DNA of 64,000 nucleotides from the NCBI GenBank assembly GCA_021324295.1, contig JAJPJJ010000126.1, positions 97,670-161,669 of the forward strand, in the 5' to 3' direction. The notes under the pieces are model-generated. The model was not told the origin of the DNA and did not search any database. It was given only the letters and a program-made list of their open reading frames with translations. The number at the start of each line of letters is the position of its first letter. The stretch's first letter is position 1. This DNA comes from Bacillota bacterium. Lineage in GTDB: Bacteria > Sysuimicrobiota > Sysuimicrobiia > Sysuimicrobiales > Segetimicrobiaceae. Of the stretch, positions 33,826 through 63,833 are shown piece by piece. The position numbers and the translations under genes were made by a program.

Positions 33826-33912
33826 GGCCGATAAAGGCAAACCTGCGGCAACGCAGGGGCGCAAAGCCACGTGACCCTCTGCAGGAGCAGAGGGCCGGAC
33901 GGGCTGCCGAAG
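33826..33912 (+). ncRNA. c-di-GMP-I (GEMM-I) riboswitch aptamer
   Basis: ccgataaaGGCAAACCtgcgGCAAcgcaggGGCGCAAAGCCACG...ccctctgcaggagcagaggg...cGGGCTGCCGAA matches the GEMM-I core with GNRA loop. Confidence 0.92.
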
Positions 33913-33948
33913 CCGGACGACCCAGGGTCCGTCCGGCTTGTTCTTTGG
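33909..33948 (+). terminator. Intrinsic-terminator-like hairpin of the riboswitch expression platform
   Basis: AAGCCGGACG-acccagggtc-CGTCCGGCTT followed by gttcttt; upstream copy of GCCGGAC (33892-33898) offers alternative pairing. Confidence 0.75.
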
Positions 33949-34025
33949 GCGTTCAGTCGCAGACGCGATACGCTGCCGCCGGGCGAGGGTGGAAGTGTCC
34001 GGCCTGCGGGGAGGAGGGACTCGAG

Positions 34026-57077: not shown

Positions 57078-59423
57078 TCAGGATGCGACGCCGCGGCCGG
57101 CACCCACCGTCCGCTCGGACGGATCGTCCAGGGCTACCCTGAGGCGCGGAGGCGCATCCACCCACGCCGCGATCATCGCGAGCCAGCGGTGCACCTCGCC
57201 GGGGTCGCGCGCCCGGTAGCGGGCCGCCGTGGGCGACATATCCAAGCCCACCCGAACGGTGACCGCCGCCCCCGCCAGCGCGCGAAACGCGTCCTCGTCC
57301 GTCTGATCGTCCCCGATGTACACGACCGCGGCGCGCGATCGCCACGCGTCCCCGAGGCGCCGCGCCAGCAGCCAGCGCACCGCGTCGCCCTTGTCCCACC
57401 CCACGTTCGGGCGGAGCTCCAGGACGTCTCTGCCCGTGCACACCCGCACCGCCGTGCCGGCCACGGCGTCGCGGACCGCGTCCCGCACCAGCGGCACGTC
57501 GCCGGCGGGCACCCGGCGAAGGTGCACGCTGGCCGTCAGGCCCTTGTTCTCGATCCACACCCCGGGGACGCCGCGCACGCTGTGCTCCAGACGGCTGCAG
57601 CACGCCGCGATCAGCCGGGCGGCGGGCGCGGCGTCCGGGAGCGTCCAGGTCCAGCCCGGCCCGGCCATTTCCAGCCCATGGTTGCCGGCGTAGAACAGGC
57701 CCGGAATCGCCAGCCGCGCGCGGATGTCCCGGAGCGATCGCCCGGTGACGACCGCGAGCATCACGCGCGGGTTCCGTGCGAGGCGAGACAGCACCTCCTC
57801 CACGGGCGCCGGGACGCACACGCGGTCCGGATCGTCACCGAGCGGGGCCAGCGTGCCGTCGAAGTCGAGCAGGAGCGCGAGCGTCCGGCCCCCTTCGAGG
57901 ACCGCCGCGCGCACCTCCTCCGAGGCGCCGGCGAGGGGCAACGCCGCCCGGCGCCCGTCCAGGATGGCCGCGGCGCAGTCCAGATGCCGGGACACCCACC
58001 GGTAGACATCGTGCTCCGCGACGTGCGCGCGCAGGGCGTGCATCCGCCGGCGACGCGCCTCCGGGGACATCTCGAGCGCGCGTCGCAGCCGCTCGGCGCA
58101 CCCCTCGATATCGTAGGGGTTCATGGGCACAGCCCCGGCGAGCTCCTCGCAGGCGCCCGCCAGCTCGCTCAGCAGCAGCACGCCGCGGCCATCCACCTGG
58201 CAGGCGACGAACTCCTTGGCCACCAGGTTCATGCCGTCCCGCAGCGAGCTCACCATGCACACATCCGCGATCCGGTACAGGGCCGCGAGGGCCGCCCGCG
58301 GGAGCGGTTTGGCGAGGTAGAGCACGGGCGTCCAGTCCGCGGTCCGATATGCAGCGTTGATGCGCGCGATCCGGGCCTCGACGTCCTGCTGCAGCTGCCG
58401 GTATGCCTCGACCCGCGTCCGGCTCGGCGCGGCCTTCTGGATGAACACGACCCGTCCGCGATACGCCGGCCACCGGTCCAGGAAGGCCTCGATGGCGCGG
58501 AGGCGGTGGAGGATCCCCTTCGTGTAGTCCACGCGGTCGACGCTCAGCACCACGGCGCGGCCGGCGAGCCGGAAGTGGCGGGTGAGCCGCTCCACCCACC
58601 GCCGGCAGTCGGAGGAGCGCGCCTGCGCGCTCAGCGCCGCGGCGTCGATGCTGATCGGCAGCGCGCGCACCTCGATCCGGCGCCCCGCGTGCTCGACGTG
58701 GTCCCCCGCGCCGGCGCGCGCCCCCAGCGCGCGCGCCGCGGCGTCCCGGAACTGCTCGGCGTCCCGCGCGCACTGGAAGACGACGAGATCGTTGGCCAGG
58801 AGCCCCTCGAGGAGCTCCTCGCGCTGGGGGCAGATCCGGAACACCTCCCAGGCGGGCCACGGGATGTGCCAGAAGTGCATCAGGAACAGATCCTCCCGCA
58901 TCTGGCGCAGCGCCCGCGGGCACAGCGCGAGGTGGTAGTCGTGCATCCACACGATCGCCCCGGGCGCGGCCTCCTGGCACACCCCGTCCGCGAACCGCCG
59001 GTTGGCGGCCTCGTAGGCGGCCCAGTCCGAGGCGGAGAAGCGAACGTGGTCGAGAGCCATGTGGCACAACGGCCACAGCGCTTGGTTGGCGTACCCGCAG
59101 TAGTATCCTTCGACCTCGCGGCCGGGAAGCGCGATCCGCCGCAGCGTGTACCGCGGTGCGTCCGGAGGCACCCCGATCCGGCCGGACGCGTCGGTGACGA
59201 GGAAGTCCGCCTCCCCGCTGCCCCACGCGATCCAGGTGCCTCCGGTCACCCGCATCACGGCGTCGAGGGCGGCGGCGAGACCCCCGGCGCCCGAGGACGC
59301 GGCGGGCCCCCGCGCGGTCATCCGGTGCTCGTACGGCTCGCGATTGCTGACCACGATCAACTGCCGGCCCGCGAGCTGCTCCCGCATCCGCTCGATCACG
59401 CGGTCCGTCCCGTGCATCGGCAT
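57078..59423 (-). CDS. Bifunctional trehalose-6-phosphate synthase / trehalose-6-phosphate phosphatase (OtsA-OtsB fusion)
   Basis: Ots[53 protein letters not shown]; Ots[32 protein letters not shown]. Confidence 0.96.
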
Positions 59424-59521
59424 GGGTCCCCCTCCAGAAGGTACGATGTCCTCTCCGGCCGGGCCGGCGGTGCGCCCAGCCATCGCCGTCGGCGGGATCG
59501 GGCGGTGGATCCGCTGCGCAG

Positions 59522-59555
59522 AAAACGACACGGCCCGGAGACGACCTCCGGGCCG
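59522..59555 (-). terminator. Intrinsic terminator of the c-di-AMP riboswitch expression platform
   Basis: Minus strand: CGGCCCGGAG-gtcgt-CTCCGGGCCG-tgtcgTTTTC. Confidence 0.88.
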
Positions 59556-59571
59556 CGACCCTGGGTGCCGT

Positions 59572-59700
59572 CTCTCACCGCCGACGGGGTTAGCTGACGG
59601 GCTCGGGTCGAGAGACTACCCTACTCGCGCACACACGCGCGAGATACGCCCCACGTTCTGGGTCCCCCGCTCCCTGCGGTTCGCAGGGATTAGGCGTACA
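59572..59700 (-). ncRNA. c-di-AMP riboswitch (ydaO/yuaA motif)
   Basis: Minus strand: ACGCCTAATCCCTGCG...GCGGGGGACCCAgaacgTGGGGCGTATCTC...GTAGGGTAGTCTCTCGACCCGAGCCCGTCAGCTAACCCCGTCGGCG, near-consensus core. Confidence 0.96.
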
Positions 59701-59731
59701 TCCGCGCTCTGGCTCTTGAACGTCCGAGGTG

Positions 59732-59760
59732 ATTATAGTACGCGCGACGACAGACAGCAA
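59732..59760 (-). promoter_or_regulatory. Sigma70-type promoter of the riboswitch-otsAB transcript
   Basis: Minus strand: TTGCTG - 17 nt - TATAAT. Confidence 0.85.
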
Positions 59761-62715: not shown

Positions 62716-63833
62716 TCACTCCGCGCAGCACGACAGCTTGGTCACGTCCTTGAAGAACGACAGCGCGACGATCTTGAGCGCCTCGGCCATCGTCGGGTAG
62801 ACGTGCACGAGGTCGATGAAGTCGTGCACGGTCGCCCGAAACCGCAGCGCCATCGCCGCTTCGTGGACGACCTCCCCCGCATTCAGCCCGAGCATCGAGA
62901 CGCCCAGCACCTCCTCGCTGTCGGCGTCCAGCACCATCTTGATCACGCCCCGCGGGTCCCGCACCGCCCCCGCCCGCGGCACCGCGCTCATCGGGACGAC
63001 GGTGCACCGGCACCGGTGGCCGGCGGCGTGCGCCTGGGCCTCGGTCAGGCCGACCACCGCGACCTGGGGGTCCGTGAAGATCGTCCGCGGGATCACCCGG
63101 TGGTCGACGCGCCGGCCGTCGCCCCGGAGCGCGTTCGAGGCGGCGATCACGCCGTCGTGCGCTCCGACCGGCGTCGCCGGCTGGTTGGCGATCTGGCGCC
63201 CGATCACGTCCCCGGCGGCCCACACGTGCGGCGCCGTCGTCCGCAGCGTGTCGTCCACCGCGACGAACCCGTGCGCGTCCAGGTGCACCCCCGGCCGCTC
63301 CAGCCCCAGCCCCTCGGTGTTGGGCACGCGCCCGGCCGCCACGAGCAGACGCGCCGCCCGGAACTCGCGCAGGCGGCCGCCGACCGCGGCGACCACGACC
63401 ACATCGGGTCCGTCCTGCCTCACCCGCTGCGCGGCGGCGTCCGTGACCAGCGTCAGGCCTTCGTCCCGGAGGATCGCCGCGAGCGTCGTCCCGATTTCCG
63501 GCTCGTACCCGGGGAGGATCCGGCCGCTGCGCTCCAGGATCGTCACCCGGGTGCCGAACCGCTGGAACATCTGCCCCAGCTCGAGCGCGATGTAGCCCCC
63601 GCCGAGGATCACGAGCGACGCCGGAAGCTCCGTGAGCTCGAGCCCCTCGTCGCTCGTCAGCAGGTCGCTCGTCAGGTACGGCACGTCGGAGAGCCCCTCG
63701 ATCGGCGGGATCGCCGGCCGGGAGCCCGTGGCCACGAGGAAGGCGTCGCCCTCGAGGACCTCGCCGTCGACGGCGACCGCGTGGCTGTCCGTGAAGGCCG
63801 CGCGCCCGTAGAACACCTTGATCCGGTCTGAGT
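62716..63833 (-). pseudogene. 5'-truncated mercuric reductase-like flavoprotein disulfide reductase (lacks FAD/redox-Cys N-terminus)
   Basis: IKVFYGRAAFTDSHAVAVDGEVLEGDAFLVATGSRPAIPPIEGL...terminal TKLSCCAE (MerA-type C-terminal Cys pair); frame closed by TAG in the adjacent repeat. Confidence 0.8.

What the first reader, a model, noticed from the sequence alone, without database searches (positions are those of the whole stretch)
59423..59760. c-di-AMP riboswitch controlling a fused trehalose synthase/phosphatase gene
Seen: on the minus strand, a clear promoter (TTGCTG-17-TATAAT), a near-consensus ydaO/yuaA aptamer, a strong intrinsic terminator with U-run, then the OtsA-OtsB fusion ORF about 100 nt downstream. 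Known: ydaO-class RNAs sense c-di-AMP and often control osmolyte, K+ or wall genes. Inference: trehalose osmolyte synthesis is directly under c-di-AMP control here, with a transcription-termination OFF switch likely.
Basis: partly seen in the sequence, partly recalled or inferred. Interest (0 to 1): 0.72.

Follow-up and report, generated by a model that had tools for sequence, protein, structure and literature searches.

The report
c-di-AMP riboswitch before trehalose gene
A known type of RNA sensor for the signalling molecule c-di-AMP sits in front of the gene that makes the protective sugar trehalose in an uncultured bacterial lineage, and relatives keep the arrangement, so this lineage probably couples osmoprotectant synthesis to c-di-AMP through a transcription-stop switch.

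Summary
On the minus strand, 59706-59565 is a full-length ydaO/yuaA c-di-AMP aptamer (RF00379, 83.2 bits, cut-off 38). It follows a perfect -10 box and precedes a strong terminator. A complete bifunctional OtsA-OtsB gene (59423-57078) lies downstream. It is the genome's only RF00379 match, and the genome encodes a CdaA diadenylate cyclase.

Relatives strengthen the functional link. In the same order, 17 of 43 genomes carry the aptamer. In 12 the next gene is otsAB. In 4 otsAB lies in the same operon behind a BrkB/YihY gene, a TreT trehalose synthase or an MscS channel; one locus is cut by a contig end. Every family-f1 genome with otsAB has it.

The switch itself can be read. The aptamer's 3' strand can pair either with an aptamer loop (pseudoknot) or with the terminator's loop and 3' arm (antiterminator). 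Both pairings covary (0/500 shuffles). This predicts an OFF switch: c-di-AMP frees the terminator. One paralogue lacks the terminator and looks translational.

It is a new member of a known riboswitch class with a lineage-specific trehalose regulon. Ligand binding is inferred, not shown; this copy has U/C at a P1 site where most relatives have G/A.

The parts
59732..59760 (-). promoter: TTGCTG (3/6) - 17 nt - TATAAT (6/6); predicted start of transcription near 59725
   Evidence: sequence; TATAAT rare in the window; TATAAT-like -10 boxes upstream of most relatives' aptamers
59565..59706 (-). c-di-AMP (ydaO/yuaA) aptamer, RF00379
   Evidence: cmscan 83.2 bits, E 7.2e-18, full length
59609..59616 (-). 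pseudoknot strand 1 in an aptamer loop (GUCUCUCG)
   Evidence: pairs with 59577-59570; covariation in 14 distinct relatives' rows, 0/500 shuffles
59570..59577 (-). pseudoknot strand 2 (UGAGAGAC) in the aptamer 3' tail
59567..59574 (-). antiterminator strand 1 (GAGACGGC), overlapping the pseudoknot strand
   Evidence: 8 of 8 pairs with 59545-59538; covariation 0/500 shuffles; MFE of truncated transcript
59538..59545 (-). antiterminator strand 2 (GUCGUCUC) = terminator loop plus start of its 3' arm
59521..59557 (-). intrinsic terminator hairpin (59557-59529) and interrupted U-run (UCGUUUUC)
   Evidence: dG -25.6, z -6.9
57078..59423 (-). bifunctional trehalose-6-phosphate synthase / trehalose phosphatase (OtsA-OtsB fusion), 781 aa, RBS GGAGGGGG
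   Evidence: PF00982, PF02358; NF011071 above cut-off; OtsA and TPP structures in the PDB

Best explanation
This is a c-di-AMP riboswitch of the ydaO/yuaA class that acts as a transcription-terminating OFF switch for trehalose synthesis. After the aptamer is transcribed, c-di-AMP made by the cell's CdaA stabilises the folded aptamer, whose 3' strand (UGAGAGAC) is held in a pseudoknot with an aptamer loop. That leaves the GC-rich terminator free to form, and RNA polymerase stops before otsAB. When c-di-AMP is low (in other bacteria, when K+ or turgor is low), the same 3' strand instead pairs with the terminator's loop and 3' arm. A second inner helix, between the linker and the terminator's 5' arm, completes the antiterminator, transcription reads through, and OtsA-OtsB makes trehalose. 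Shown here by sequence: aptamer, terminator, two mutually exclusive covarying pairings, gene identity, cyclase, conserved linkage. Inferred: ligand binding by this copy, direction of the response, physiological trigger.
For: RF00379 at 83.2 bits. CdaA in the same genome and a DAC domain in 39 of 43 genomes of the order. Aptamer directly before otsAB in 12 genomes and in the otsAB operon in 4 more, including operons with TreT trehalose synthase and an MscS mechanosensitive channel. Terminators in 18 of 19 aptamer leaders of the order; own tail/terminator pairing beats swapped partners, permutation p 0.003. Antiterminator: 86.5% of cells paired, 5 pairs changed on both sides, covariation 0/500 shuffles, collapses when slid by 1-3. 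Pseudoknot: covariation 0/500. Transcripts cut before the terminator is complete fold into the antiterminator. Experimental precedents for termination OFF switches: B. subtilis kimA/ydaO as cited in PMC9960051 and B. thuringiensis kdpFABC, PMC6488665.
Against: No ligand binding or termination has been measured. This copy has U/C (59692/59583) at a P1 site that is G/A in most relatives. In single sequences the antiterminator duplex is mostly no better than shuffled tails, so its support rests on covariation. The related sequences are not independent and were anchored by hand, so the 0/500 counts are not probabilities. About a dozen other otsAB genes in the order lack a recognisable aptamer. The -35 box is weak and the U-run is interrupted.
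Confidence: 0.85

Rival explanations
1. The riboswitch works as an ON switch or mainly at translation: c-di-AMP binding raises otsAB expression (antitermination) or controls access to the ribosome-binding site.
For: A G037 copy (L023) lacks a terminator and its aptamer tail GAGAGAGGGG sits right before the AUG, a translational layout. A translational c-di-AMP riboswitch is reported in C. glutamicum (PMC9960051).
Against: In the window the RBS lies about 90 nt beyond a strong terminator. The strand that would open the terminator is the one locked by the folded aptamer, which predicts OFF.
Confidence: 0.08
2. The aptamer has drifted and no longer senses c-di-AMP, or senses another ligand, because a P1-internal G/A pair has become U/C.
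For: U at 59692 and C at 59583, both changed together; only one other copy of those listed (G057, L020) has the same pair.
Against: The site tolerates U/A, A/A and U/C in other copies; the rest of the core matches and scores 83 bits; expression platform and gene linkage are intact.
Confidence: 0.06
3. The gene product is not a trehalose enzyme but a related osmolyte enzyme (for example glucosylglycerol-phosphate synthase).
For: TIGR02398 (glucosylglycerol-phosphate synthase) scores 315 bits.
Against: TIGR02398 is far below its cut-off of 569; NF011071 OtsAB is above its cut-off; the C-terminal half is a trehalose phosphatase (TIGR00685 155 against 68) with DFDGT and GDDxTDED motifs.
Confidence: 0.03

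Closest known systems
ydaO/kimA c-di-AMP riboswitch, Bacillus subtilis
   Same: aptamer class, reported transcription-termination OFF logic (as cited in PMC9960051)
   Different: controls a K+ importer instead of an osmolyte-making enzyme; different phylum
kdpFABC c-di-AMP riboswitch, Bacillus thuringiensis (PMC6488665)
   Same: aptamer + intrinsic terminator + gene about 100-140 nt further on; termination promoted by c-di-AMP in vitro
   Different: K+ uptake operon
nlpC c-di-AMP riboswitch, Corynebacterium glutamicum (PMC9960051)
   Same: aptamer class; its translational mode resembles the layout of the G037 copy (L023)
   Different: cell-wall peptidase; no terminator, unlike the window
OtsAB fusion (NF011071/PRK14501)
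   Same: domain order, both domains' signatures, above the curated cut-off
   Different: here headed by a c-di-AMP aptamer; no such control of otsA found in the held literature

Membership tests
c-di-AMP riboswitch (RF00379) | match to the covariance model over the gathering score | tested here: met
   83.2 against 38 bits, positions 1-134
c-di-AMP riboswitch (RF00379) | pseudoknot between aptamer loop and 3' GAGAG strand | tested here: met
   8 of 8 pairs in the window, covariation 0/500 shuffles; that this pseudoknot belongs to the class is from general knowledge
c-di-AMP riboswitch (RF00379) | conserved core residues of the binding sites | tested here: inconclusive
   core matches, but U/C replaces the usual G/A pair in P1 (59692/59583); same change in one other copy; exact mapping to solved pockets not done
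c-di-AMP riboswitch (RF00379) | binds c-di-AMP | not testable with these tools
   needs in-line probing or ITC
c-di-AMP riboswitch (RF00379) | host makes c-di-AMP | tested here: met
   CdaA: TIGR00159 253 bits, PF02457 + PF19293 at G000:C93
transcription-terminating OFF riboswitch | intrinsic terminator before the gene | tested here: met
   dG -25.6, z -6.9; 18 of 19 leaders of the order
transcription-terminating OFF riboswitch | antiterminator mutually exclusive with the folded aptamer | tested here: met
   strand 59574-59567 overlaps the pseudoknot strand 59577-59570; covariation
transcription-terminating OFF riboswitch | ligand raises termination | not testable with these tools
   needs single-round transcription
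OtsAB fusion (NF011071) | score over curated cut-off, both domains | tested here: met
   667 against 634 bits; PF00982 and PF02358

The most novel reading that the evidence does not exclude
In this uncultured lineage (apparently Sysuimicrobiota/CSP1-3) c-di-AMP directly runs a compact osmotic regulon by RNA alone: trehalose synthesis (OtsAB, TreT), a mechanosensitive channel and a sugar ABC importer all under ydaO aptamers, with the readout switched from termination to translation in one copy.
Probability: 0.5. Interest if true: 0.55.

Novelty: new member of a known kind. Interest (0 to 1): 0.42.

Why it matters
c-di-AMP is best known for controlling uptake of K+ and osmolytes and, in actinobacteria, cell-wall enzymes. 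Direct RNA control of the synthesis of a compatible solute, conserved across an uncultured group, extends the regulon to osmolyte production. It offers short, testable leaders with a clear antiterminator. It also gives a physiological clue (osmotic or desiccation response through CdaA) for a group without well-studied isolates.

Tried and rejected
The idea that the gene is a glucosylglycerol-phosphate synthase was rejected on curated cut-offs. The idea that otsAB loci without a listed aptamer have a weak one was tested by a permissive cmscan of 15 loci: none found. A single-origin reading of aptamer-otsAB was tested on an OtsAB tree: 4 gains or losses needed, at least 3 forced, clustered versus 10.2 in shuffles. 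Single-sequence duplex energies against shuffled tails were mostly not significant, so they are not used as evidence. A second trehalose route by TreT was looked for in the window's own genome: absent. The founding papers (Block 2010, Nelson 2013) are not held, so whether they list a trehalose gene could not be checked.

Full report
OBSERVATION. The minus strand at 59706-59565 matches RF00379 over its full length with 83.2 bits (gathering score 38, E 7.2e-18). It is the only RF00379 match in the 4.02 Mb genome. Upstream is TTGCTG-17-TATAAT; the -10 is perfect and the -35 poor (3/6), which is why the consensus scan does not list it. Exact TATAAT is rare here (3 in 64 kb, 0.45 expected), and a TATAAT-like box lies at a similar distance before most relatives' aptamers. 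Downstream is a hairpin at 59557-59529 (dG -25.6 kcal/mol, z -6.9) followed by UCGUUUUC, then the ATG of a 781-aa ORF at 59423 behind GGAGGGGG.

THE GENE. The ORF has an N-terminal glycosyltransferase family 20 domain and a C-terminal trehalose-phosphatase domain. It passes the curated cut-off of the bifunctional OtsAB model (NF011071, 667 against 634 bits), while the glucosylglycerol-phosphate synthase model is far below its cut-off. Its best solved relatives are OtsA and trehalose-6-phosphate phosphatase structures. The HAD motifs DFDGT and GDDxTDED are present. No TreT was found in this genome; other trehalose routes were not tested.

THE LIGAND'S SOURCE. The genome has one DAC-domain protein. 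It is a CdaA: TIGR00159 253 bits against a cut-off of 189, DAC plus CdaA_N domains. DAC domains occur in 39 of 43 genomes of the order. TrkA_C (RCK_C) domains, frequent protein targets of c-di-AMP elsewhere, are also present.

RELATIVES. The genome belongs to an order whose NCBI records are titled Armatimonadetes or Armatimonadota MAGs. Contig lengths and coordinates identify three relatives: G023 is JAVHMA010000006.1, G033 is MENB01000039.1 and G040 is JAIBHM010000169.1. I take the group to be CSP1-3/Sysuimicrobiota (PMC11604079); this is inference. Seventeen of 43 genomes of the order carry 20 RF00379 aptamers. The next gene is otsAB in G000, G001, G002, G004, G005, G008, G017, G020, G026, G037, G039 and G041. 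In G021 and G040 a BrkB/YihY membrane protein lies between. In G033 the order is TreT - YihY - OtsAB. In G023 it is TreT - MscS - YihY - OtsAB. G027 has the same sequence as G040 and is cut by the contig end. TreT makes trehalose by another route and MscS is an osmotic safety valve, so the shared theme is osmotic control by trehalose. The three further aptamers head a sugar-type ABC transporter (G020: solute-binding protein, then two permease-like ORFs and an ATPase-like ORF), a G8-domain protein (G041) and a region with a short ORF that reads like a glycogen-binding protein (G017, not tested by profile).

All six otsAB-bearing genomes of family f1 have the aptamer. Outside it, about a dozen otsAB genes lack one even in a permissive search. 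On an OtsAB tree the label needs 4 changes (10.2 in shuffles), so the leader has been gained or lost a few times.

THE SWITCH. In the window the 3' strand of the aptamer, UGAGAGACGGC (59577-59567), has two possible partners. As UGAGAGAC it pairs 8 of 8 with GUCUCUCG in an aptamer loop (59616-59609). As GAGACGGC it pairs 8 of 8 with GUCGUCUC (59545-59538), which is the terminator's loop and the start of its 3' arm. Across relatives both pairings covary. Antiterminator: 86.5% of cells paired, 10 double changes, covariation 0.367 against 0.198 in shuffles, none of 500 as high, and the signal collapses on sliding. Pseudoknot: 15 double changes, 0.482 against 0.278, none of 500. The rows are related and I anchored them by hand, so these counts are not probabilities. 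G017 was left out of the antiterminator table because its 8 pairs lie in another register. Examples of changed antiterminators are GAGACGGC/GUCGUCUC (window), GAGAAGGU/ACCUUCUC (G023) and GAGAGC/GCUCUC (G040). Swapping tails and terminators between genomes weakens pairing (p 0.003). Transcripts cut before the terminator's 3' arm is complete fold into a two-helix antiterminator; G004 uses another register.

A terminator is present in 18 of 19 leaders examined. The exception, in G037 (L023), has GAGAGAGGGG directly before its AUG, a layout for control of translation. Because the strand that opens the terminator is the strand locked in the folded aptamer, ligand binding should favour termination. 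This agrees with measured c-di-AMP OFF switches: kdpFABC of B. thuringiensis (PMC6488665) and ydaO/kimA as cited in PMC9960051.

A CAUTION. The window's copy has U at 59692 and C at 59583, where most relatives have G and A; one unrelated copy (G057) has the same U/C pair, and U/A and A/A also occur. I could not map this to the solved binding pockets, so c-di-AMP specificity of this copy is likely, not shown.

NOVELTY. Reviews say ydaO RNAs stand near genes for synthesis and transport of osmoprotectants (PMC7288161), ion, osmoprotectant and amino-acid transporters in Firmicutes and cell-wall genes in actinobacteria (PMC9960051). No held paper found describes a c-di-AMP riboswitch on otsA, but the founding papers are not held. 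I file it as a new member of a known class, with a lineage-specific trehalose regulon.

Noticed in passing
window 33827-33912 (+): A c-di-GMP-I-GGC riboswitch (RF03167, 60.6 bits) with a promoter-like TTGACA/TATAGT upstream and a terminator-like hairpin at about 33912-33950, followed by a 72-aa ORF (from about 34027) that I did not identify.
   Followed up: partly
genome G000 and its whole order: RF03167 is very abundant in this lineage: 13 matches in G000 and at least one in all 43 genomes of the order, none in 14 control genomes. Which cyclic dinucleotide these sense, and what they control, is open.
   Followed up: partly
L023 (G037:C174): Aptamer before otsAB without a terminator; the aptamer's GAGAGAGGGG tail sits where a Shine-Dalgarno sequence would be, so the same riboswitch seems to have moved from transcriptional to translational control.
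   Followed up: partly
L079 (G020:C35:7000-12791): A second c-di-AMP aptamer heads what reads as a complete sugar ABC importer (binding protein, two permease-like ORFs, ATPase-like ORF), perhaps an osmolyte importer.
   Followed up: partly
L016 and L017 (G040:C126, G027:C62): Identical aptamer-leader sequence in genomes of two different genera; may be recent transfer or contamination of one assembly.
   Followed up: no
window 62719-63816 (-): Mercuric reductase-like flavoprotein (TIGR02053 405.7 bits, below the cut-off of 454) lacking its N-terminal part in this ORF call.
   Followed up: no
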